NCBI GenBank assembly: GCA_030427245.1 | Contig: JAUHXA010000014.1 | Coordinates: 1 to 64,000, forward strand | Length of the DNA: 64,000 bases | From: Bacteroidia bacterium | GTDB lineage: Bacteria; Bacteroidota; Bacteroidia; Chitinophagales; UBA2359 | Direction of reading: 5' to 3' | Shown here: positions 9,414 to 64,000 of the stretch, one piece after another | Layout: each line of letters starts with the position of its first letter | Numbering within the stretch: the first letter of the stretch is position 1 | Program-made: the position numbers and the translations under genes | Notes under the pieces: generated by a model | Seen by the model: only the letters and a program-made list of their open reading frames with translations | Told to the model about the DNA's origin: nothing | The model's database searches: none

Positions 9414-10991
9414 ATGAACACACCTCCCAAAAAAAGAGTAAGCTCGGATGCGCTTCTTGACTTCAAGATTGAGTGTTATAAGCGTAAAAGATTTGACTTA
9501 CTGCAATTAACGCCTAAGCAAATCCAAGCGATGGAAATGCTCAATACGCATTTGATTGAGGCTTGTGTATTTGGAGGGGGTGCAGGGGGAGGTAAATCTT
9601 GGCTTGGGTGTGAGTGGATTCTTTGGAATTGCTTGGCTTTTCCTGGCACTAAGTGGTTTATTGGAAGAAAGGAACTCAAGAGGCTAAAAGAAACCACTGT
9701 AAGGACTTTTATAAGGGTATGTGGTAAGCATAGGTTAAGGAATGGATACCACTACAAATATAGCCCATCCATCTCCTCAACCATTTATTTCCGCAATCCC
9801 AACCCAAACGAGTACGCTAAAGATGTATGGGAAGGGGGTAGCCTTGTTGACCTCAAAGATTTAAAATTCATGCCTTCAGACCCACTGTATGAAGACTTGG
9901 GGAGTACGGAATACACAGGAGGGTTTATTGAGGAAGCAGGAGAGGTTCCAGAGGGTGCTTTTGATGTCTTGAATACTCGTACTGGAAGGATGCTCAATGA
10001 CCACTACCATCTAAACGGGACGATACTCCTAACCTGTAATCCCAAAAAGAACTTTCTTTACAGAGATTTTTACAGACCCTGGAAGAAAGGCGAATTGCCC
10101 GAAAGATATGCGTTTATTCAATCTTTAGTGGGGGATAATGATAAAGGGGAAAGTAGTTATGCCAAGAAACTGGATGATATCAAAGACCCTCTTAAAAAAA
10201 GAAGACTTAGAGACGGTGATTGGGAGTATGATTTGGACGAAACGGTATTGTTCGATTATGATTCTCTGACCAATATGTTTACCAATACCTATGTGCCAGA
10301 AGGGGTCAGCTACATCACTGCAGATATTGCTCGAATGGGTAGCGATAGAATTGTTGTGTTGGTATGGAAAGGGTTTAAAGTAGTTGATATTTATGTGGGG
10401 CAGAAAATGCCTATTGATGAAACAGCCAACCTAATCAAACGTTTGGCTAAAAAATACAAGGTCCCGATGAGTCGGGTGATTGCAGATGAAGATGGCGTTG
10501 GAGGAGGTGTGGTAGACATCTTAAAATGTAAGGGGTTTGTCAATGGAGGCAAAGTATTGAATGGAGAGAATTACGCTAATCTAAAGACACAATGTGCCTA
10601 CAAATTGGCTGCCAAAATCAATAACAATGAATTCTATGTTGATTTGGGCGCAAAAGCAGGAAGCTCTCTGGAAACGGAAATCATAGAGGAGTTAAGTGTT
10701 GTAAAACGAGATAAAATTGATTCAGACGGAAAGCTGCATATCAACAAAAAAGAAGAGCAAAAGATGATGTTGGCAAGCACAGACAAAGGTAAGCGTTCAC
10801 CAGATTTAGCAGATGCTTTTTTGCCTCGTATGGTCCCAGAATTAAAAAACGAAGAGACATCAAGCAGGGAAGTTTCTTTTGAAGAAGAAAGCCCTCAAAC
10901 GACCACTACTCTCCCCATTACCGAAGAAATCACACTTGAAGACGGCAGTAAGATTATCACCAGAGGAGGCATGAGGTATATTATTGAATAA
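9414..10991 (+). CDS. Terminase large subunit
   Basis: 525 residues. ATPase half: Walker A-like FGGGAGGGKS at 53-62, Walker B with catalytic acid GGFIEEAGE at 169-177, coupling motif LLTCNPK at 205-211. Nuclease half: TADIARMGSDR at about 299-310, IADEDGVGGG at about 357, and DLADAFL near 465 supply the metal-binding acids of the RNase H-like fold. It cuts and pumps DNA into the prohead through the portal. Unusually, the portal candidate is 40 kb away. Confidence 0.93.
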   Translation: MNTPPKKRVSSDALLDFKIECYKRKRFDLLQLTPKQIQAMEMLNTHLIEACVFGGGAGGGKSWLGCEWILWNCLAFPGTKWFIGRKELKRLKETTVRTFIRVCGKHRLRNGYHYKYSPSISSTIYFRNPNPNEYAKDVWEGGSLVDLKDLKFMPSDPLYEDLGSTEYTGGFIEEAGEVPEGAFDVLNTRTGRMLNDHYHLNGTILLTCNPKKNFLYRDFYRPWKKGELPERYAFIQSLVGDNDKGESSYAKKLDDIKDPLKKRRLRDGDWEYDLDETVLFDYDSLTNMFTNTYVPEGVSYITADIARMGSDRIVVLVWKGFKVVDIYVGQKMPIDETANLIKRLAKKYKVPMSRVIADEDGVGGGVVDILKCKGFVNGGKVLNGENYANLKTQCAYKLAAKINNNEFYVDLGAKAGSSLETEIIEELSVVKRDKIDSDGKLHINKKEEQKMMLASTDKGKRSPDLADAFLPRMVPELKNEETSSREVSFEEESPQTTTTLPITEEITLEDGSKIITRGGMRYIIE

Positions 10992-31079: not shown

Positions 31080-34000
31080 ATGGCAAATAATCAGTTGGTT
31101 TATACAATAGAGCTTCGCAATGGCAAGCTCATCAAGGACATCAATGACTTCATTAAGAAGAACCAGGAGGGCGCAGATTCTATTGAGCAGATTGCGGAGG
31201 CGAATAAGAAGCTGATTGCTGTTGCTAAACAAGCTACCGACCGAACTACCGAGGGCTACAAAAAACTCGCTGCTCAAATCTCTGCCAACAAAGCGGAGGT
31301 GAAAGCCTTCAATCAGGAAATAACCAATACTCCCAACAACAAGTCCTACGAACAACTTCGCAGCGAAATTGACCGAACAGCCAATACCATTGAAGGGCTA
31401 CGACTCAAACAAAAGCTGCTCAAGGAAGCGTTTGAAAAGCAAGAGATAGGCTCACAAGGATATGCCCAACTCCAATTACGACTCAAGGAAACCAATCTTG
31501 AGCTAAAAAAACAGCTGGATACAGTCAAGAAGTCCACCCAATCATTGGGAGGGGTAAACGAAAGCGCAAAGTTTGCGGCTGGCTCGTATGGTGAATTAAG
31601 GCAAAATATCAAGACAGCCAAAGATGAGCTCCAAAAATACACCGTAGGCAGTAAACAATACGAAGTAGCTCAAAAAAACCTCAACGAACTCCTGCAAAAA
31701 GAGGTCGATATTCGCAGGACTCAACCTTCCCTCTTCCAAACCCGCATCACCCAAGCCATTAACGAATCGGATGCGGTCAAAAAACTCCAAACTGCAGCCG
31801 CCAATCTTCGGCTGGAGCAGGGAGCTTTGACTCAAGCTTCTAAAGACAATGCGGATGCTCAAGCGGAGGTACGCAAGGAAATGGAACGCACCGCAAAGGT
31901 GTCTGGTAAATCTTCGGCTGAGTACAAAGAACTTGAACAAAAGCTCAAATCACTCGAAACCCAAGAGGTTCGCAATACCAAAGAGTTTAAGCGGATTCGG
32001 GAGGAATTACAGAAAACCAATACAGCCATTGACAAAGCATCCAAAGGGTTTAGCGGCATTGGTAAAAACCTAAAAACTGTCGGGGCTTTAGTGGTAGCAA
32101 AGTTGGGCTTCGATGCGGTCAAAGATTCCTTTTTAGCGACAGTGAAGGCAGGAGCGACCTTCGAGCAGAAGCTAAAAGATGTACAAGCGGTTAGTGGAGC
32201 GACTGGTCAAGAACTTCGCAAGATTGAACAGTTGAGTTTGAAGCTTGGAGGAAGTACACAGTTCACCTCCAGCGAGGTGGCCGAGCTTGCAAAAGAATAC
32301 AGCAAACTTGGTTTCACTATTAATGAAATCGTACAAGTCGCTCCTGGCACCTTGGATTTAGCCACAGCAACAGGCACTACCCTTCAAGAATCGGCTGTGA
32401 TTACTGGGGCCACGCTGCGAGCCTTCCAACTCGATGTTTCCGAAACAAGCCGAGTTGTAGACGTATTGGCGCTTTCTTCTTCTAATTCTGCATTGGATAT
32501 GGAAAAGATATCCAATTCCTTAAAATTTGTAGCCCCAGTTGCTGCAGCTGCGAATATTGATTTAGAAGCGGTAGTGGGAACATTGGGGGCATTGGCAAAT
32601 GTTGGAATAGATGGGTCAAGGGCAGGGACTTCATTGCGTAGAATTTTTTCTGACATCAGCACAGAGGGGTCAAAACTCACCAAAACACTTGGTTTTACAG
32701 TCAAAACAGGGGATGATTTGATTCGGGCCTTCAAACAACTGCAAAAAGAAGGGGTAGACAATGCTAAGGCTCAAGCATTGGTAGGTCGTGAAGCGCAGTC
32801 TGCATTTGTGAGTTTGGTAGCACAAGCCGACAAAGTAGAGGAATTGGCAAAAACGTATGATGGCGCAACAGGAAGCGCAGAACGAATTGCCTCTGTCCAA
32901 AGAGATTCATTGAATGTGGCTTTTCTTACCTTCCTTTCTGCCATCGAAGCCTTGCAGATAAACATTACCAAATATCTCAACGGACCTTTGCGTGGTTTGT
33001 TAGCAGGAATGACTTCTTTGGTCAATTTATTCAACGACTTCATCAAGATACCTGTTAGCGAGCAATTGAAAGACGAGCAGCGAGAATTGGGCAATCTTGT
33101 CAAATCAATTCAAGTCACCAATAAGAACCAAGAAGCCCGCAAACAACTCATTGAAGAATTGCAAGCAAAATATCCTGACTTCTTAAAAAATATTGACGCT
33201 CAAACAGTCAGCAATGAACAGTTAGCGGGCCGTTTATTGGAAGTCAATCAAATATTAGAAGACAATATTAGGCTGCAAGTAGAGCAAGAAAAGTTCGATA
33301 TAGCTCAAGCAAAAAGGGATGCAGTACAGGAACAAAGAAAAGCAACTCAAAAAAAACTCACTGAATTGCTTATTGAGGCCGAAAAAGAATATGGAGTCAC
33401 TATCAAAACAACAGGCTCTGCGACAGAAATAGCAGCGGATGCTTTTGAACAACTCCGCAAGCAATCCACTGCCTCCACATTGGGGCTAAACTTTTTTGCT
33501 AAAAATTTTGTAGAAACGCTCAATGAATTAAGGTTTGCAGAGGAAGATTACTCTAAAGCAAGCGAAGGGGTTGCCGAGGCGGTGAACGGTAAGATTGGGG
33601 CACTCCGTTCTTATGTACAAGACACAGGTGATGCCACCAAAAAAACAGAACTACTCACTCTTGAGTTAGAGCAGCTTAACAAACAGTATTCGGTGTTGTC
33701 AGCAGAGGGCGCAGATGCCAATCAAATAGCCAGTGTTTTGAGCCAAATCAAAGCCACCCAAAAAGAACTCTCTGCTTTAGAGATAGAACTCGCTCCTGTA
33801 CCCAATGCCGAAGATGCAGGAGATGAAACAGGCAAAGATTTTACGAAAGGATTCTCCTCTCAAATCTCTAAAATCCAAAGAGAAATTGCCGATAACTTAG
33901 AACTTGGATTGTTTGATGTGTCTGATAAGTTAGCGGCTTCCTTAGAGAAGTTTGGGGAAGATGGGAAGAGAGCGGCTAAGAGAGCCTATGAGCAAATTTT

Positions 34001-36281
34001 GTCTGCTCGAATTAAGTTCATTGACCAACAAAATGACCTCGACCAAACCCTACTCGAGTCAGAATACATCCGCAATGAACAATCCCTCAACGCATTTATC
34101 GAAACCGAAAAAGCAAAATTAGAGCAGTTAGAAAGTCTAAACGACCAGAAAAAAGAAGGGCTTATCCGTTTTGCCTCCACCGAGCAGTCGGTTCAGCAAG
34201 AAATAGCAGACAAGAACATTGCCTATGAAGAAGCAAAACTAAAATCCTTCTTAGATGCTGCCAATAAAAAACTGGAAGTTCTTCGGCAAGCAGGCAAAGC
34301 CGAGTCGCTCGAAGCGAAAAAAATACAACTTGAAATTCTCAAGGAACAGGAAGCCTTTGAGGACTTCAAATTGAAGCGAATAGAAGACTTGAATGACCAA
34401 CAATTAGAGAGCATCCTCCGAAACAAGGCGCTCGAAATTGAGGTCATGCGAGAAGGAAACCAAAAAGTGTTAGCAGAGCTTCAACTCAATCAGGTAGAAC
34501 GATTCAGGACCTTCAATGAATCCGAAGAAAAACGGCTGGAAGATTTCTCCAAAGCGCAAGCCGAGTATCGTCAAAAACTCATAGATGCGGACTATGAAGA
34601 AACCCAAATAGAGCGCAAATTAGCGACTGAGAGAGAGAAGTTTATTGAAGAAAAAGAACAGCGAGAACAAGCTCTTCGTGATAAATTTGCGGAAGAACGT
34701 TTGCAGCTTAGAAGGGATGCACTCATCAAAGAGAGTCAGCTTGTGGCTGATTTTATCAATGTGGCCAGTGAACGAGGGCAATTGGAATCTGATTTTGGGG
34801 TATCAAATCAAATCCTTGCATTACAACAACAATTAAAAAACAGAGAAATATCCCTCAAGGAATTTGAAGACAAATCAGAGGGAATTCAGCAGCAAGCATT
34901 AGAAGTCTTTAGAGAAAAGCAAAAGCAGCGCACAGAGGCATTGATTGTAGAATTAGAAAAACAAGCCGATTTATTAGCAGCAGGAACAGAGGAGGAAAAG
35001 CTCCAGGCAGAAGAATTGAAAAACGAAATTCTACGCATCAAAAAACAACAAGTAGATGAGGAGATAGAAGTAATCGAAAAGGGCCTGGAAGGAGAAAAGA
35101 AAAAACGAGAAGACTTTATCAGAGACTTGGAGGAAGACTTCGAGCGAATCCTACAAGTACTTGATATTGCAGGAACATTTTTTGAGGCTGCTTCCAATAA
35201 CAGAATTGGGGCAATCGACAAACAGATTGACCGAAGCGAGAAGCGTATTGAAGAACTGCAAGCAAAAGCCGAAAATGCCAATGAGCAGGAGCGATTAAGC
35301 ATTGAGGCAAAAATCAAATCAGAAGAAAGCTTAATAGAAGGGTTAGACAAAAAGAAAGAAGACCTTGAGCGCAAAGAATTTGAAAGAAACAAAGCCAAAT
35401 CCATTGCAGAAGCATTGATCGCTGGAGCATTGGCTATTTTGAAGGCGACTCCCAATCCATTCTTAATTGCATTGGCTTCTGCTACAACTGCAGCACAAGT
35501 AGCCCTCATTGCAAGCCAAAGCTATGCGATTGGCGGGCTACTCATGGAATCTATCCAATCAAGCATGTTGCGTCAATCACTTGGACTTTCCAAATACGCC
35601 AAAGGGGACTTACTTGCCGATGGGCTGCAAGTGCTTTCACATGGACACATACCAAGTCGAAGCGGAATCATATCAGGGCCACCTCATGCAGCAGGAGGTA
35701 TCAAAGCCCGAACCGCATCTGGAAGAATCATAGAAGTCGAAGGACAGGAACCCACGGCAGTACAAGGCACAGGAGCAAACGCCATTCGCCTCATTTATAC
35801 CAAGAAAGTAGCCCGCAATCCATTTTTGAAGCAAGTAGCCCTTATGACCGAATCGGGCAAAATAGACCCCATCAAATTGGCGGTTGGTAGCTTCATCAAC
35901 AGACTTAGTGGAGGCAAAGACTTTTACAATACGACAGGAACAGGAGGATTGAAATTTGAATACGGGGGCTCGCTTGCCGACAGAATGACACCCCGATTGC
36001 CCATGTCGGTACTGTACAACACAGGAGGAGCTACAAGTGGAGGCTTTGGGAGTGCCGTTGTTAGCACAAACGATGCATTGGTAAAAATGCAAATCGCAGC
36101 AACCGAAAAGCAAAATCGGTTGATAGCCGAACAAAACGCACTGCTCCAAGAAAACACCCAAGAAGTACGAGCTGTTTCGGGGGCAATCAACGCCCTCGAA
36201 GCAGATGCCACTATCCCTTTCACCAAAAAAGTAACCGACACTCAACAAAAGATTCAACAATTATCCAATAATGCCAAATAA
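31080..36281 (+). CDS. Tail tape-measure protein (TP901 family core)
   Basis: 1733 residues. The N-terminal 330 residues are coiled coil. Residues about 335-620 carry the TP901-type tape-measure core (GATFEQKLKDVQAVSGATGQ, then FTSSEVAELAKEYSKLGF and GIDGSRAGTSLRRIF). Long E/K/Q/R-rich coiled coils run to about 1500. Hydrophobic helices near 1440-1490 (SIAEALIAGALAILKATPNP) may insert in the host membrane, and a Gly-rich C-terminal part follows. The length sets tail length; this size fits a long flexible tail. Confidence 0.93.
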   Translation: MANNQLVYTIELRNGKLIKDINDFIKKNQEGADSIEQIAEANKKLIAVAKQATDRTTEGYKKLAAQISANKAEVKAFNQEITNTPNNKSYEQLRSEIDRTANTIEGLRLKQKLLKEAFEKQEIGSQGYAQLQLRLKETNLELKKQLDTVKKSTQSLGGVNESAKFAAGSYGELRQNIKTAKDELQKYTVGSKQYEVAQKNLNELLQKEVDIRRTQPSLFQTRITQAINESDAVKKLQTAAANLRLEQGALTQASKDNADAQAEVRKEMERTAKVSGKSSAEYKELEQKLKSLETQEVRNTKEFKRIREELQKTNTAIDKASKGFSGIGKNLKTVGALVVAKLGFDAVKDSFLATVKAGATFEQKLKDVQAVSGATGQELRKIEQLSLKLGGSTQFTSSEVAELAKEYSKLGFTINEIVQVAPGTLDLATATGTTLQESAVITGATLRAFQLDVSETSRVVDVLALSSSNSALDMEKISNSLKFVAPVAAAANIDLEAVVGTLGALANVGIDGSRAGTSLRRIFSDISTEGSKLTKTLGFTVKTGDDLIRAFKQLQKEGVDNAKAQALVGREAQSAFVSLVAQADKVEELAKTYDGATGSAERIASVQRDSLNVAFLTFLSAIEALQINITKYLNGPLRGLLAGMTSLVNLFNDFIKIPVSEQLKDEQRELGNLVKSIQVTNKNQEARKQLIEELQAKYPDFLKNIDAQTVSNEQLAGRLLEVNQILEDNIRLQVEQEKFDIAQAKRDAVQEQRKATQKKLTELLIEAEKEYGVTIKTTGSATEIAADAFEQLRKQSTASTLGLNFFAKNFVETLNELRFAEEDYSKASEGVAEAVNGKIGALRSYVQDTGDATKKTELLTLELEQLNKQYSVLSAEGADANQIASVLSQIKATQKELSALEIELAPVPNAEDAGDETGKDFTKGFSSQISKIQREIADNLELGLFDVSDKLAASLEKFGEDGKRAAKRAYEQILSARIKFIDQQNDLDQTLLESEYIRNEQSLNAFIETEKAKLEQLESLNDQKKEGLIRFASTEQSVQQEIADKNIAYEEAKLKSFLDAANKKLEVLRQAGKAESLEAKKIQLEILKEQEAFEDFKLKRIEDLNDQQLESILRNKALEIEVMREGNQKVLAELQLNQVERFRTFNESEEKRLEDFSKAQAEYRQKLIDADYEETQIERKLATEREKFIEEKEQREQALRDKFAEERLQLRRDALIKESQLVADFINVASERGQLESDFGVSNQILALQQQLKNREISLKEFEDKSEGIQQQALEVFREKQKQRTEALIVELEKQADLLAAGTEEEKLQAEELKNEILRIKKQQVDEEIEVIEKGLEGEKKKREDFIRDLEEDFERILQVLDIAGTFFEAASNNRIGAIDKQIDRSEKRIEELQAKAENANEQERLSIEAKIKSEESLIEGLDKKKEDLERKEFERNKAKSIAEALIAGALAILKATPNPFLIALASATTAAQVALIASQSYAIGGLLMESIQSSMLRQSLGLSKYAKGDLLADGLQVLSHGHIPSRSGIISGPPHAAGGIKARTASGRIIEVEGQEPTAVQGTGANAIRLIYTKKVARNPFLKQVALMTESGKIDPIKLAVGSFINRLSGGKDFYNTTGTGGLKFEYGGSLADRMTPRLPMSVLYNTGGATSGGFGSAVVSTNDALVKMQIAATEKQNRLIAEQNALLQENTQEVRAVSGAINALEADATIPFTKKVTDTQQKIQQLSNNAK

Positions 36282-56423: not shown

Positions 56424-57572
56424 TTATAGGATTGATTTATTGTGTTTTACTACATCATACTGGTCAGTGTACCTCCACATTATTTCTTTTGACTCCCATC
56501 CACCATTATTCATGATTATTTCAGTTGGAACATTTGCTTCCAACATAGCGACTGCCATTCCAACACGCAGAGAGTGACTACTTTTATCTGCTCCTAAAAA
56601 CTCCTTAACTAATCGTTGCACAGTTTGGGAGCTTATGTGTATTTCAGACTTGTCAAGCCCTTTGTTTCTGATTTTGTAAAATAAACACCCTGACGAGATG
56701 TTGGCTTCTTGAATATACTGACGGAGCGTTGCGATTGGGCAATGGAGAGGGTTTTCGACTGGAAGAATATGCTTTCTGTAGTTATTTCTTGTTTTGTTGT
56801 TTTCTTCGTCCATTTTAATAAATAGAGCATCATTGCTAAATTCCAGTTGCTCAAAACTCATAGATGCCACTTCAGATACTCTGCACATGCCATGAAAACC
56901 AATTAATATTATAGTGCGGTCTCTAAGTGAAGTTAGGCGGATTTTGGCTTGCCGAATTTTGAGGGTTTTAACCAATAACTTCTTTGTAAGAAGGCTATCT
57001 ATCTGTTCGTTTTCCTTCTTGATGATTTTATTTATGGCATCTTCAATATCAATAGACGTTGCTTTCTTGGCTTGCTTAGGGTGTACATGCTTACCCCTCT
57101 TTGCCATGGTTCTTTTTGTTTTTTTTAAATAATCCTTCGTTCTAAAAGTGTATGGAGAAGGGACGGACTCTTGCTTATGTAGCCAAGATACGAACATTAC
57201 TCTACGCTTGATCGTGTTATAACTTGCGCCTTTTTTTACAACTACATTATTTTTGTAAATAGGCTTAATAAACGCCATGTAGGTTATGTACATTACTAAA
57301 GCAGTTTCGGGCATAACAATACGTTCCCCTTTCTTGTTTTGTGCGTACAAATAGAACGATTTACTTTCTTCATCTATATGAACGAAATCACACCCTATCA
57401 TGCTTTCAAAGAAAGCGTTTATACACTTAGCGTCTGACAGTCGAGACAAATAGGTGTTATTACACATTTCTTCTGACTTGATTGTTTGAAGGCTTGAAGG
57501 TATTCTACTGCGTGAGGTCATTTGACTTTGTATAATCTCAAGGGAATCTTCAAAATTTTCGTATGTTGACAT
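56424..57572 (-). CDS. Tyrosine recombinase 1
   Basis: 382 residues. N-terminal core-binding domain with basic KRTMAKRGKHVHPKQAKKA (about 157-175). Catalytic domain: first R in FHGMCRVSEVASM, HSLRVG with H and R of box II, W in NNGGWESKEIM, nucleophile Y in MWRYTDQY. It is a paralogue of the next gene upstream, with the same end (KHNKSIL against KHNKSVL). Both probably act on the phage's own attachment or resolution site. Confidence 0.88.
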   Translation of the reverse strand: MSTYENFEDSLEIIQSQMTSRSRIPSSLQTIKSEEMCNNTYLSRLSDAKCINAFFESMIGCDFVHIDEESKSFYLYAQNKKGERIVMPETALVMYITYMAFIKPIYKNNVVVKKGASYNTIKRRVMFVSWLHKQESVPSPYTFRTKDYLKKTKRTMAKRGKHVHPKQAKKATSIDIEDAINKIIKKENEQIDSLLTKKLLVKTLKIRQAKIRLTSLRDRTIILIGFHGMCRVSEVASMSFEQLEFSNDALFIKMDEENNKTRNNYRKHILPVENPLHCPIATLRQYIQEANISSGCLFYKIRNKGLDKSEIHISSQTVQRLVKEFLGADKSSHSLRVGMAVAMLEANVPTEIIMNNGGWESKEIMWRYTDQYDVVKHNKSIL

Positions 57573-57605: not shown

Positions 57606-58727
57606 CTATAAAACTGATTTATTATGTTTTGCAATATTGTATTGCTTAATGTACCTCCATAGCATCGCCTCTGTTTTCCATCCTCCATTGTTCATTATCA
57701 CCTGAATAGGTATACCTGCCTCATACATGGCGACTGCCATACCAATACGCAGAGAGTGACCGCTTTTGTCCGTACCAATATGCGTTTTTATCAACCGAGC
57801 TACGGTCTTATCGCTTAGATGCTTCCCCGATTTATCCAAGCCTTTATTTCGGATTCGGTAAAACAAATACCCATCTGTAATCCCTGTGACTTTCAAATAT
57901 TGCCTCAGTGCTGCGATAGGACAGTAGAGAGTATTTTCGGCAGCGGGGATGTGTTTTTTGTAATCATACGAAGTCTTGCTGTCCTGGTCAGTCATGTGAA
58001 TAAACAACTGATTGCTGCCAAACTCCAATTGCTCATATTTCAATGCAGCGAGTTCCGCCCTACGAAACATGCCTGTAAATCCTAACAGCAACAAAGTTCT
58101 GTCTCTCAATGCTGTGAGCTTAATTTTATTTCTTCTTATGTCTGCCTTATGTACATTTAATTTATTGATTTGCAAATATCTAAGCTTTATCTTAGCCGAT
58201 TTAATAACATCATCAACGCCTTCCTTTAAGTCAAAAACATTGATTTTTTTGGCTTGATTTGCATGGATATGCTTTCCGTCTCGGCCCATACGCTTTTTAA
58301 CGGCCTTTAGAAATTTTTTAATATTGGAGGTGTAAGGGGAAGGGATATTATTCTCTTTATGTATGTGGCTGATAAAAGCCACTCGGTGAGTAATTGAGGC
58401 GTAACTCATTCCATAACGCAAAACTTCGCCTTTTTGACTAATCACAGGTTTCTTATCCGCTACATAGGCAATGTAGGCTACCAACATTTCTTGACTGATA
58501 CCTTCTGTGATTAAATAAAATTTCTTCTGAACTTCGTCAATATTAATAACGGATTCGTTGGCGACCAATTCAAAAAACTCATTGATGCAATGAGCATCCG
58601 AACGATACGCCTCAAAAGTATTTCTTGGTACCGCATCAATAAGTGCGCCTTCTGAGTAGTCGTATAAGTCGGGTAGTAAATTACTGGCAAGTTTAGAGTT
58701 CTGGTTATTAACCTTTAATTTGTTCAT
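57606..58727 (-). CDS. Tyrosine recombinase 2
   Basis: 373 residues, same architecture: basic KRMGRDGKHIHANQAKK, R in FTGMFRRAELAAL, HSLRIG, NNGGWKTEAM, catalytic Y in LWRYIKQY. First gene of the pair; its ATG lies 3 bp from a 44-bp perfect inverted repeat. Two tandem, similar recombinases suggest a heterodimeric XerC/D-like reaction or a paired-integrase system, not a single integrase. Confidence 0.88.
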   Translation of the reverse strand: MNKLKVNNQNSKLASNLLPDLYDYSEGALIDAVPRNTFEAYRSDAHCINEFFELVANESVINIDEVQKKFYLITEGISQEMLVAYIAYVADKKPVISQKGEVLRYGMSYASITHRVAFISHIHKENNIPSPYTSNIKKFLKAVKKRMGRDGKHIHANQAKKINVFDLKEGVDDVIKSAKIKLRYLQINKLNVHKADIRRNKIKLTALRDRTLLLLGFTGMFRRAELAALKYEQLEFGSNQLFIHMTDQDSKTSYDYKKHIPAAENTLYCPIAALRQYLKVTGITDGYLFYRIRNKGLDKSGKHLSDKTVARLIKTHIGTDKSGHSLRIGMAVAMYEAGIPIQVIMNNGGWKTEAMLWRYIKQYNIAKHNKSVL

Positions 58728-60765: not shown

Positions 60766-60835
60766 TGGAGCTATGCGGTTTCGAGCCGCATTACCAATTC
60801 CCTTGATAATTTTGTTATCTCGGTACAATAGCCCC
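60766..60835 (-). ncRNA. tRNA-Ala-like RNA element, copy B
   Basis: Identical over 70 nt to copy A at 1194-1263 (71 with the next C): acceptor GGGGCTA/TAGCTCC with G3-U70, T-arm TGCGG-CTCGAAA-CCGCA, no anticodon arm. Its 5' end overlaps the end of the 171-residue gene: the last codons (GAIVPR and stop) lie inside the element. Processing at its 5' end would therefore remove that gene's stop codon. Confidence 0.7.
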
Positions 60836-61330
60836 ATGATTTTTTTTAAGTGATAAATATTCATCCCAATCCTCCGCCCTTATATTCTTCTCCAGAAACT
60901 CATCCATGCCCATATCACGACACTCGTTTACAAATCTCATAAACCCAACCACTCCCCTACACTCCTCCAATCCATCTCTTCTAAATTTGGACTTCATAGG
61001 TTCATCAAGTGATGCAATCCAATCATCAAATTCTTCTGGAGTAGCATCCTCTCCTTCTGGTTGGTCATAGTATCGCTTACACCAATATCCAAAGCGAAAA
61101 ATATAATCTTCCCATAAGGGGATTATGGATACCGAATGAGCCTTTTTCAGCAAAGCATCATCCGCAGACGTGTAATAGTCTTTTTCGGCTCCTGCAATCT
61201 TCATTTCAATGCGATATTCAACCGCCTCCGCAGGCTTGCCGAGTTCTTGCAGCTTCGATTTAATCGCTGCTTTACGGTAAGCAAGAGATTGGTTTTTGAA
61301 TTGGATAGGGTGTATTTCTGGTATCTTCAT
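60815..61330 (-). CDS. Hypothetical protein ending inside tRNA-like element
   Basis: 171 residues, acidic and helical (YCKRYYDQPEGEDATPEEFDDWI). No family recognised. The last six codons are part of the tRNA-Ala-like element. Its start overlaps the upstream gene's stop by 4 bp (61327-61330). Confidence 0.7.
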   Translation of the reverse strand: MKIPEIHPIQFKNQSLAYRKAAIKSKLQELGKPAEAVEYRIEMKIAGAEKDYYTSADDALLKKAHSVSIIPLWEDYIFRFGYWCKRYYDQPEGEDATPEEFDDWIASLDEPMKSKFRRDGLEECRGVVGFMRFVNECRDMGMDEFLEKNIRAEDWDEYLSLKKNHGAIVPR

Positions 61331-62316
61331 TGTGCTTTCTTGTATTGCTTATCATAAGCTGCTGCCTGTTTTAACCACTCTTCATGTTCTTTCTTTAAGG
61401 GTACTCGCTGACAAATCGCACCAGCTCCTGATGTGGGGTAATTGTTCCAATCCCAAGCATCACCATCCCCGCCATTGTTGCGAACATAATAAAAGTGATT
61501 TTTATCCTTGTGAAGCCATGAACCTCCACCGTTTAGTGTTGGCCCCTGATGGGTGAATACCATAATGCGGGGCAGTTCTGCAATCAATTTACATTCTTCT
61601 TCAGTAGGATTGTTGTCGGGTACACTGGAGAAAAAAGCATGAAACTCACTCTTCAAACGCTTTGTTTCTGCCTTTTGGGTTTCGTGAGACTTCTTGTCTG
61701 CCTCCTCAATGTCGTTTAGTTGCTGCAAAATAGGCGTGTCCCCGAGCAATACCTGTGAACCGTAATAACTCACCTTTATTCCTGCCCTCAACAGGTCTGC
61801 TATCGCCCCAACAGCGTAGTACCATCCTCTCACCTCTCTTGTGGAGGTATAGTACCCTGGCATTTGGTCATCCAGCCATTCCATCTCTTCCTCGCTTCCG
61901 TTATTGTAGGTGCGATGAGAAGAGGAGATGATGTTCCAAATTCCTTTGGGTAGTCGTTGGGTGATAACCAATCCTAAGCCCATCTTTGATTTGAATTCGA
62001 CAGCCGTACTACCTCCACGAATGGAAGACTCCAGTATTGTCTCATCTCGAACCCTTCTGTGTTCTTTTGATTCTACAAAATAACCATGCACGTTCTCTCC
62101 TACTTTTAGGCAGATTTCGGGGTGCTTTATCAGTAGTGTACCTTTTCTTGTCATCTCCAACACCTCCTCTTTTCGCAATCCCGCTTTTTCCATTGCCTCC
62201 GAATTGACGAATGGTTTTTGATTGTAGTTGTACAGATAGCCCTGTGAATCGGAAGCAGCCGAGAAGTATCTTTCTGTACCGTCTGGCTTGGTGAGGATAT
62301 ATTGATTTGTTTTCAT
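61327..62316 (-). CDS. Hypothetical protein in Csf3-like operon
   Basis: 329 residues, no signal peptide. Contains a Gly/Trp-rich stretch near the C-terminus (YVRNNGGDGDAWDWNNYPTS). No enzyme motif recognised. Tightly packed with its neighbours, so it probably serves the same pathway as the Csf3-like gene. Confidence 0.7.
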   Translation of the reverse strand: MKTNQYILTKPDGTERYFSAASDSQGYLYNYNQKPFVNSEAMEKAGLRKEEVLEMTRKGTLLIKHPEICLKVGENVHGYFVESKEHRRVRDETILESSIRGGSTAVEFKSKMGLGLVITQRLPKGIWNIISSSHRTYNNGSEEEMEWLDDQMPGYYTSTREVRGWYYAVGAIADLLRAGIKVSYYGSQVLLGDTPILQQLNDIEEADKKSHETQKAETKRLKSEFHAFFSSVPDNNPTEEECKLIAELPRIMVFTHQGPTLNGGGSWLHKDKNHFYYVRNNGGDGDAWDWNNYPTSGAGAICQRVPLKKEHEEWLKQAAAYDKQYKKAQ

Positions 62317-62334: not shown

Positions 62335-62454
62335 TTATTTAAACACTACTTTGGATTCGTAATCCAGTCCTCTTTCATTATACCCCCTTTCGTAGATTAC
62401 GCCTGATTTACAAACAAGCGTAAGGCAATATCCGTCAGAAGATATGTTAAGCAT
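62335..62454 (-). CDS. Small hypothetical protein (39 aa)
   Basis: ATG 62454-62452 to TAA 62337-62335. The product (MLNISSDGYCLTLVCKSGVI then YERGYNERGLDYES) is protein-like and fills the gap between two genes of the operon. The hairpin AGCATTT/AAATGCT overlaps its start. Confidence 0.5.
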   Translation of the reverse strand: MLNISSDGYCLTLVCKSGVIYERGYNERGLDYESKVVFK

Positions 62455-62492
62455 TTCTAAAATGCTACGCAAATATTTTTTTATAAAAACGC

Positions 62493-62984
62493 TTAAAAAG
62501 ATAATTTATTTTTGATAGCAGTTAGTTTGCTTCTCGTAACCTCCACTTCGTCAGTGCTTGACAGTCCTTTCTGCATAAGCGTTTCCCAAAGCATTAGCTG
62601 TGTATCAATCCCATCCAAAAGCGTTTGTTGGTTGTCTTGGGTGAGTGTGACAGACTTTGAAGCTTTGCCTGTTACTAGTATGGTCATTTCTCCGCTTTCA
62701 ATCTCCACGTTTGCAGCAGATGCTTCTTTCAATAATTCCTGCGCTGCATCCATGATGGCTTGCTGTTCTTGATGACTCAGTGTGCCAAGGCTAATCTTTG
62801 AACTCAACCCTGTACGTTTGGCGGTGCGAGTTTTGTTGGTGTTCCCCGCATGAGGAATGAGGTGTTTTCGCTCAACAAGCAAATCATACGCTCGACACAA
62901 CAAAGTCGTTTTGTTGAGAATCTTTTTTTCGTCACATATAGTCTTCAAAAACTGATATGCGTCTTGTGGTTTAGGCTGCTTCAT
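62493..62984 (-). CDS. Hypothetical helical protein next to Csf3-like gene
   Basis: 163 residues from ATG 62984 (MKQPKPQDAYQFLKTICDEK), which overlaps the Csf3-like stop region by 14 bp; the longer frame to 63173 lies within that gene. Basic middle (KTRTAKRTGLSSK), helical C-terminal half. A small-subunit-like role beside a RAMP protein is possible but not shown. Confidence 0.65.
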   Translation of the reverse strand: MKQPKPQDAYQFLKTICDEKKILNKTTLLCRAYDLLVERKHLIPHAGNTNKTRTAKRTGLSSKISLGTLSHQEQQAIMDAAQELLKEASAANVEIESGEMTILVTGKASKSVTLTQDNQQTLLDGIDTQLMLWETLMQKGLSSTDEVEVTRSKLTAIKNKLSF

Positions 62985-63801
62985 AAGATATTGCGTTTTT
63001 TGAAAGTTCAGTAAATGGCACGTAGCACTTGTCAATATTTTCGGGTAGCCATGCAGGAGCTGCCCATGAGCGTTGTTGGATTTGAAATCCATTTCGCCCA
63101 TACCTATAATTATCCTCCTCATCCAAAACAGACAGTGGCATTGGTCGGAGTAGATGTGAATGAAAATCAACACTGGAGTTTTCTATTTCAAAACCACTGA
63201 CCACTCCCCTACCCTGGCTTCTTCCTTTCTTGCCGATGCTTCGAATATATTTTTTACACAACCGAGACACTTCCGTAGAATCTCCTTCAAAGTAAAACCA
63301 CGCCTCACTAATCAGGTGTCGCTCCTGCGGAATATCTACCGCCTTATCTGGTCCTGCATTGGTTCGGTATTTTCGTTTTCTGCCATCCGCAGCTATCAAA
63401 TGTGAGTGCTGCGAGTCGAATTTTTGGCGAGTAGGTTCGATGTAGCTGTGTCCTCCTGGAGCATAAAACATCTGACTGCCATACAACCATCCGTCTTTAT
63501 GCACTTCCAAAGGAAAATCTGTTAGCCTGTTTACTTCCAATCGCCTATATTGAACCTTGCCAATATCATTTTTGTGGATGAGTATTTCAATACCATCCAT
63601 ATTAATGGCTATCACAAAGTTTCTTGCTCCTTCCAAAGCTATGCGGTTGAAGTCAATACGAGGCTCGGGCAAATGAGTGCGAGCCTTTGGAGTATATTGA
63701 AGATTGTCTACAAGCCATGCGTAGCCTATTAAGTCCTCCAAAAGTGGAGGGAAGGTGAAGCTTGGAGGCGAGTCGAATTTGAAGGTTATTTTCTGTGTCA
63801 T
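62971..63801 (-). CDS. Csf3-like (Cas5-group RAMP) protein
   Basis: 276 residues. N-terminal FPPLLEDLIGYAWL; FPLEVHKDGWLYGSQMFY at 96-113; NAGPDKAVDIP at 148-158; then FEGDSTEVSRLCKKYIRSIG followed by KKGRSQGRG (190-199), the glycine-rich loop of RAMP folds; C-terminal APAWLPENIDKCYVPF, like the PYWHPENR...C..P ending of type IV CRISPR Csf3 proteins. In type IV systems Csf3 binds the 5' part of the guide RNA. No csf1, csf2 or CRISPR array is in this window. It follows an IbrB-like ParB gene by 24 bp. It may be an RNA-binding protein of a phage system distinct from CRISPR. Confidence 0.6.
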   Translation of the reverse strand: MTQKITFKFDSPPSFTFPPLLEDLIGYAWLVDNLQYTPKARTHLPEPRIDFNRIALEGARNFVIAINMDGIEILIHKNDIGKVQYRRLEVNRLTDFPLEVHKDGWLYGSQMFYAPGGHSYIEPTRQKFDSQHSHLIAADGRKRKYRTNAGPDKAVDIPQERHLISEAWFYFEGDSTEVSRLCKKYIRSIGKKGRSQGRGVVSGFEIENSSVDFHSHLLRPMPLSVLDEEDNYRYGRNGFQIQQRSWAAPAWLPENIDKCYVPFTELSKNAISYEAA

Positions 63802-63825
63802 AATTTAAAAGCGATTAAAAATGTT

Positions 63826-64000
63826 CTATTCCCAAGCGGGAGAATATTCGTGATCTTGAAACAATCCAGAAACTCCCAATCCCACAAAAACTTTCAGTCT
63901 GGTTACCTCATCGGTTTTCATGCCAATCTCCTTCCCTATTTTCTCATCATCCCATCCAAGTTCCACCATATCCTTCACAAGTTCGGCAGTAGAACCTGCT
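63826..64000 (-). CDS. ParB-like (IbrB type) protein, C-terminal 57 residues
   Basis: The frame enters from the right edge and ends at TAG 63828-63826. ELVKDMVELGWDDEKIGKEI, then TDEVTRLKVFVGLGVSGLF and EYSPAWE, is the typical end of IbrB-like ParB proteins, with a helix-turn-helix. IbrB genes are commonly paired with IbrA, a PAPS-reductase-like gene, which would lie to the right, outside the window. Confidence 0.6.
   Translation of the reverse strand, partial: AGSTAELVKDMVELGWDDEKIGKEIGMKTDEVTRLKVFVGLGVSGLFQDHEYSPAWE

What the first reader, a model, noticed from the sequence alone, without database searches (positions are those of the whole stretch)
62971..64000. Csf3-like RAMP protein paired with an IbrB-like ParB protein in a phage
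The 276-residue protein shows a Cas5/Csf3-like glycine loop and the Csf3-type C-terminal signature, and is coupled to a ParB-like gene of the IbrB type. Type IV-B CRISPR loci are known to associate with CysH-like genes, and IbrB partners IbrA, a CysH-like enzyme. This suggests a phage-borne RAMP/CysH/ParB system without a CRISPR array, possibly acting in DNA modification, anti-defence or competition between mobile elements. The genes down to 60815 are packed with it and may be components.
Basis: partly seen in the sequence, partly recalled or inferred. Interest (0 to 1): 0.78.

Follow-up and report, generated by a model that had tools for sequence, protein, structure and literature searches.

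The report
Phage-borne CRISPR-like complex with IbrA/IbrB
A phage (probably a phage-plasmid) carries a complete but memory-less CRISPR-like RNA-binding machine (type IV-B), interleaved with two ATP-using enzymes (CysH and IbrA) and a ParB-like protein (IbrB); the same combination recurs in unrelated viruses and archaeal plasmids, which makes IbrA/IbrB a concrete lead on the unknown function of type IV-B systems.

Summary
The 276-residue protein is Csf3 (Cas5 of type IV): profile E=7e-19 to solved Csf3, and the best fold matches are the three solved Csf3 chains. The gene cut at 64000 is IbrB. Past the window edge, on the same contig, lie IbrA, a GNAT, a CysH-like enzyme, a Cas6-like protein, Csf2 with Cas11 nested inside it, Csf1 and a PD-(D/E)XK exonuclease. 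Phage genes (terminase, tape measure) plus Rep_3 and ParA share the contig. No CRISPR array was found near the locus and no cas1 in the host genome. A 30-bp promoter/operator element occurs only three times in 107.8 kb, all inside this cluster. IbrB accompanies type IV-B csf genes in nine lineages of about 45 loci, against 0.43% of phage records; in five it sits inside the csf operon, with nearly the same gene set in phages L058 and L141. I file it as a new variant of type IV-B. That IbrAB works with the Csf complex is inferred (about 0.65); the chemistry (ATP-dependent modification of RNP-bound nucleic acid, for counter-defence or element competition) is inferred and weaker. The main rival is a generic phage IbrAB cassette inserted beside csf.

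The parts
62971..63801 (-). csf3 (Cas5-type subunit), 276 aa
   Evidence: PADLOC typeIV_Cas5 7e-21; profile to PDB Csf3 7e-19; fold matches Z 10.5
63826..64000 (-). 3' end of ibrB (ParB-like, 227 aa; whole gene 63826-64509 in contig numbering, which equals window numbering). The rest of the system lies right of the window on the same contig and strand: ibrA 64506-65732, GNAT 65725-66153, 30-bp element copy 2 66188-66217, cysH 66242-66958, cas6-like 66986-67774, 172-aa ORF 67743-68261, 258-aa ORF 68302-69078, element copy 3 69156-69185, csf2 with nested cas11 69220-70629, csf1 70583-71380, PD-(D/E)XK exonuclease 71394-72062.
   Evidence: phrog_2159 6e-61; 56% identical to IbrB of phage L058. 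Neighbours:
62493..62984 (-). 163-aa ORF overlapping the end of csf3, same operon, no known family
   Evidence: read; no hit for the longer reading of this ORF in Pfam or PHROGs
62447..62476 (-). 30-bp promoter/operator element, copy 1 (before the 329/171-aa genes)
   Evidence: three copies in 107.8 kb, none elsewhere, 0 in 20 shuffles
61327..62316 (-). 329-aa ORF downstream of element copy 1; membership only by the shared element
   Evidence: no family, no relative in csf loci
60815..61330 (-). 171-aa ORF overlapping the 329-aa gene by 4 nt; membership unproven

Best explanation
A phage, probably replicating as a phage-plasmid in a Bacteroidota host, encodes a type IV-B-like Csf ribonucleoprotein module and uses IbrA, IbrB and a GNAT as further components. 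Shown by sequence: csf1, csf2 with nested Cas11, csf3, an IV-B CysH, a Cas6-like protein, IbrA, IbrB, GNAT and a PD-(D/E)XK nuclease on one strand in one gene cluster; two of its sub-operons and one flanking gene pair carry the same promoter/operator element; no array nearby. Inferred: Csf2 units, each bringing its own Cas11 half, polymerise on short RNAs capped by Csf3 and Csf1; the Cas6-like protein trims or selects the RNA; the complex recruits CysH and the IbrA-IbrB pair. CysH and IbrA keep the ATP-pyrophosphatase residues but no invariant cysteine, so they would activate (adenylate) nucleic acid, nucleotide or protein substrates rather than reduce PAPS or insert sulphur, with IbrB as the NTP-binding, substrate-presenting partner. 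The likely purpose is control of host or competitor transcripts or defences, not adaptive immunity. Identity about 0.95; functional coupling of IbrAB to the Csf complex about 0.65; the adenylation chemistry about 0.3.
For: Gene identities. Overlapping or tightly packed genes, gaps of -47 to 141 nt from the exonuclease gene to csf3. The 30-bp element sits only at three unit starts in this cluster. IbrB accompanies IV-B csf genes in nine lineages: window phage, L058, L141, L034, L051, L027, L024-26, Natrinema, Actinarchaeum. In L034, L051, L058, L141 and the window phage ibrAB lies between csf genes. Base rate 217 of 50,697 phage records; binomial for 8 of 45 is 2e-11, and 5e-5 even at a 3% base rate. 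On the Csf2 tree the IbrB label needs at least 5 changes. L141 combines csf1, csf2/cas11, cysH, ibrA, ibrB, GNAT, PD-(D/E)XK and csf3 in one operon. PP-loop SxGKDS and GxRxxESxxR are kept (near-invariant) and no Cys is invariant in IbrA (9 sequences) or CysH (13). Nested Cas11.
Against: IbrAB is a common phage pair without csf: 79 of the 80 viral loci with the best-matching IbrB have no csf hit, and GNAT and PD-(D/E)XK genes also flank such csf-free pairs. Most IV-B loci lack IbrB. The Cas6-like gene was found only here and in G389, so it is not a general part. No RNA, binding or enzyme data exist for this locus. The two CysH-type enzymes may have separate roles.
Confidence: 0.6

Rival explanations
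1. Neighbours, not partners: a generic phage IbrA-GNAT-IbrB(-exonuclease) cassette and a type IV-B module share one accessory-gene island, and the common promoter element only shows shared timing of expression.
For: IbrAB with GNAT and PD-(D/E)XK occurs without csf, for example L103; at least 578 IbrB relatives in IMG/VR; IbrB of L034 groups with csf-free phages.
Against: Embedding between csf genes in five lineages with gene overlaps; co-occurrence in bacterial phages and haloarchaeal plasmids; enrichment over base rate.
Confidence: 0.3
2. RNA-guided competition: the complex loads crRNA-like guides made elsewhere, or from an unrecognised mini-array, processed by the Cas6-like protein, and silences rival phages or plasmids as type IV-A does.
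For: A Cas6-like protein with a histidine at the expected place sits in the operon; type IV-A silences plasmids (PMC11656645); an archaeal virus IV-B has a two-repeat mini-array (PMC10848311).
Against: No array in the contig or near relatives, no Rfam CRISPR hit, no cas1 in the host genome; no Cas6-like gene was seen in the other IV-B loci with IbrAB; the one studied IV-B complex was not enriched for crRNA (PMC7937560).
Confidence: 0.2
3. RNA sponge or anti-CRISPR: the Csf filament soaks up short guide RNAs of host defences, and CysH/IbrA inactivate the bound RNA.
For: A IV-B complex assembles on heterogeneous RNA of uniform length (PMC7937560); the sponge hypothesis is published (PMC8175902).
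Against: Does not by itself explain CysH, IbrA and IbrB; the present host genome has no cas1, though other hosts may.
Confidence: 0.2

Closest known systems
Type IV-B CRISPR-Cas (csf1-cas11-csf2-csf3 + cysH), Mycobacterium sp. JS623 complex (PMC7937560) and Fuxivirus of Bathyarchaeia (PMC10848311)
   Same: csf1, csf2, csf3, Cas11 and CysH present; no array at the locus (Fuxivirus has a two-repeat mini-array); on a mobile element; Fuxivirus also carries a Cas4-like nuclease.
   Different: Cas11 is nested inside Csf2; a Cas6-like gene is present; IbrA, IbrB and GNAT are interleaved; csf3 is separated from csf1/csf2 by about 5.4 kb.
IbrA/IbrB phage pair (phrog_2302 and phrog_2159; DUF3440 and ParB), described as co-activators of prophage gene expression
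   Same: Both genes, overlapping by 4 nt, with a GNAT neighbour also seen in several csf-free phages.
   Different: Usually without csf genes; here inside a type IV-B cluster.
Type IV-A CRISPR-Cas (Csf3 structures 8rc3, 7xfz)
   Same: Csf3, Csf2 and Csf1 families; a Cas6-type gene.
   Different: No DinG seen in the cluster, no array; carries CysH and Cas11.
Glacial phage-plasmid CY1_63_1964 (PMC4490671)
   Same: ParA/ParB phage-plasmid with IbrA/B and a CRISPR-Cas system.
   Different: Its CRISPR-Cas is type I-E with three arrays.

Membership tests
Type IV-B CRISPR-Cas | csf1, csf2 and csf3 present | tested here: met
Type IV-B CRISPR-Cas | Cas11 small subunit | tested here: met
   As a domain nested in Csf2: (7e-9; relatives 4e-17 to 2e-14)
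Type IV-B CRISPR-Cas | CysH-like gene | tested here: met
   238-aa gene at contig 66242-66958, closest to CysH of other IV-B loci
Type IV-B CRISPR-Cas | no CRISPR array at the locus | tested here: met
   also relatives
Type IV-B CRISPR-Cas | no crRNA-processing Cas6 (a described rather than required feature) | tested here: not met
   Cas6-like genes in G000 and G389. Hence filed as a variant of IV-B, not as typical IV-B.
Type IV-B CRISPR-Cas | Csf2 groups with IV-B Csf2 on a tree | tested here: inconclusive
   Tree of IV-B-like Csf2 only; the nested-Cas11 group is one starred clade; IV-A and IV-C were not included
Type IV-A CRISPR-Cas | DinG helicase and array | tested here: not met
   No array; none of the ten cluster proteins scanned is a helicase
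Cas6 endoribonuclease | RAMP fold with C-terminal glycine-rich loop and catalytic histidine | tested here: inconclusive
   Profile matches and G-rich loop; the histidine matches by eye; no cleavage data, no model of this protein
IbrA/IbrB pair | DUF3440 PP-loop gene overlapping a ParB-like gene | tested here: met
Phage-plasmid | Virion genes with plasmid replication and partition genes on one molecule | tested here: met
   Terminase, tape measure, ParA, Rep_3 on one contig; circularity not shown

The most novel reading that the evidence does not exclude
Probability: 0.25. Interest if true: 0.92.

Novelty: new variant of a known kind. Interest (0 to 1): 0.72.

Why it matters
The function of type IV-B is an open question and its CysH partner is the main clue. 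IbrA is a second PP-loop enzyme with a known genetic partner (IbrB), and its recurrence inside csf operons gives new, testable pieces: a compact phage-borne locus, a Csf2-Cas11 single chain convenient for structure work, and a Cas6-like protein that may reveal the natural RNA. I found no paper in the held library that describes IbrA/IbrB with type IV or Cas11 nested in Csf2, but two key type IV surveys were not readable here.

Tried and rejected
The archaeal gene annotated Cas6 in a IV-B locus (Thermococcus nautili) turned out to be Csf3, so a general Cas6 association was dropped. Single-sequence searches with Csf2 in viral contigs and phage records found nothing; alignments were needed. The eight-sequence alignment gave no usable pattern. 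Repeats on the contig at 85963-86159, 87399-87590 and 93984-94133 were looked at as possible arrays and rejected: short palindromic or irregularly spaced repeats near the ParA/Rep region. The idea that the locus is decayed was rejected: all frames are open and the element is conserved. The IbrB tree is limited, because the csf-free sequences were chosen by similarity to the window's IbrB.

Full report
The window is the first 64,000 bases of contig C70 (107,784 bp) of a 7.58-Mb genome, so contig and window numbering agree. A Csf2-bearing genome of the same phylum (G369) has a 4,835-bp contig of the same length as an Ignavibacteria record that the Csf2 scan also returned, so the phylum is probably Bacteroidota in the GTDB sense. 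The contig carries a large terminase (9414-10991) and a tape measure gene (31080-36281) in the window, and ParA (87855) and a Rep_3 initiator (89244) further right, which fits a phage-plasmid. G+C is even along the contig and the ends do not overlap.

The 276-aa protein is Csf3. It matches PADLOC typeIV_Cas5 at 7e-21 and the NCBI Csf3 model at 5e-6, below cut-off. A 25-sequence alignment with relatives hits solved Csf3 at 7e-19 and 6e-18. The predicted model is of moderate quality (pLDDT 61), yet the three solved Csf3 chains are its best matches, Z 9.8-10.5 against 7.4 for the next family.

Right of the window the same strand carries IbrB (63826-64509), IbrA (64506-65732, DUF3440 1e-29), a GNAT (65725-66153), a CysH-like PP-loop enzyme (66242-66958), a Cas6-like protein (66986-67774), two unknown ORFs (67743-68261, 68302-69078), Csf2 (69220-70629), Csf1 (70583-71380) and a PD-(D/E)XK exonuclease (71394-72062). 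Gaps from the exonuclease gene to csf3 are -47 to 141 nt. A 30-bp element (TTAAGCATTTCTAAAATRCTACGCAAATAT, read on the + strand) lies at 62447, 66188 and 69156 and nowhere else in 107.8 kb at up to 6 mismatches; 20 shuffles gave none at up to 3. Read on the minus strand it looks like a Bacteroidota promoter (TTTG, then TAACTTTG in two copies) with a palindrome between; that reading rests on general knowledge. It links three transcription units, including the 329/171-aa genes below csf3.

Csf2 holds a nested Cas11. A model built only from standalone Cas11 proteins hits the insert in the window phage (7e-9), G389 (4e-17), L058 (2e-15) and L031 (2e-14), and no ordinary Csf2 control significantly; profile comparison gives 98.9%. 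The predicted structure of the L058 protein (pLDDT 81) shows a helical insert at residues 48-151 within a Csf2 fold that matches type IV Csf2 (Z 17-19; IV-B 7jhy 17.0). The four nested forms are one well-supported clade, though two of them are long branches; more were found in L139-L142.

Relatives. The archaeal plasmids of Natrinema and Actinarchaeum carry csf1-cas11-csf2-csf3 with cysH and IbrA/IbrB beside them. Thirty-six viral loci with Csf2 were fetched. IbrB is present in L024-26, L027, L034 (csf1-cas11-csf2-ibrA-ibrB-csf3) and L051 (csf1-cas11-csf2-ibrA-ibrB-cysH-csf3). Phage L058, whose IbrB is the closest found (56%), has csf2/cas11-ibrA-GNAT-ibrB-cysH-csf3-csf1. L141 has csf1-csf2/cas11-cysH-307aa-ibrA-ibrB-GNAT-methyltransferase-exonuclease-csf3 (the GNAT frame has a stop after 84 codons in this contig, and the methyltransferase call rests on similarity to the L024 gene, whose own family match is weak). 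That is nine lineages of about 45 distinct loci (my count; duplicates removed by eye). IbrB is in 217 of 50,697 phage records; the binomial for 8 of 45 is 2e-11, or 5e-5 at a 3% base rate. These figures ignore sampling and relatedness; on the Csf2 tree the label still needs at least five changes.

Against coupling: IbrAB is widespread without csf. At least 578 viral IbrB relatives exist, and of the best 80 only L058 has csf. GNAT and exonuclease genes flank csf-free pairs too. A generic cassette placed in a csf island remains a serious rival.

Mechanism. IbrA and CysH keep the PP-loop SxGKDS and GxRxxESxxR as near-invariant residues and lack an invariant cysteine, as reported for IV-B CysH, for which ATP alpha-hydrolysis was proposed (PMC8175902). 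A IV-B complex forms a Csf2/Cas11 filament on heterogeneous RNA of even length (PMC7937560). The Cas6-like protein adds a possible RNA-processing step: the G389 protein hits solved Cas6 at 6e-8 and the pair profile at 3e-4, and a histidine lies at the corresponding place in both (by eye). No array was found on the contig or near the relatives examined, no Rfam CRISPR hit and no cas1 in the host. The most likely reading is an RNA-bound complex that brings ATP-activating enzymes to nucleic acid for counter-defence or element competition; the last steps are inference.

Literature. Type IV-B with CysH, mostly without array, in plasmids and some viruses is known (PMC11656645, PMC10848311, PMC12669027). 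No held paper that I found links IbrA/IbrB to type IV or describes Cas11 nested in Csf2; two central surveys could not be read. The verdict is a new variant of a known kind.

Noticed in passing
G389: L012:7887-12059 and L013:8063-12235: Two copies, with identical translated proteins, of a compact csf1-cas6like-csf2/cas11-cysH-csf3 operon on different contigs of one genome, each beside restriction-modification genes and an integrase.
   Followed up: partly
L012:18915-19727, L013:2090-3088: ParB-like proteins with a DGYHR motif lie about 5-7 kb from the G389 csf operons.
   Followed up: no
56424-57572 and 57606-58727: Two adjacent minus-strand genes that look like tyrosine recombinases, next to the csf cluster (by eye, no family search).
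   Followed up: no
contig 87399-87590 (L003:7399-7590): Four A+T-rich palindromic repeats just upstream of ParA, possibly partition sites or iterons.
   Followed up: partly
contig 74952-75785 and 78457-80157: An N6/N4 DNA methyltransferase (Pfam 1e-6) and a likely cytosine methyltransferase (by eye) upstream of the cluster; methyltransferase-like genes also accompany ibrAB in L024, L141 and Actinarchaeum.
   Followed up: partly
L024:7105-7908 and L018:11780-12565: A conserved protein of about 265 aa with no known family beside ibrA in two distant IV-B loci (31% identity).
   Followed up: partly
L058:5604-5680: Flavo-1 RNA (Rfam RF01705) in phage L058, which suggests a Bacteroidota host.
   Followed up: no
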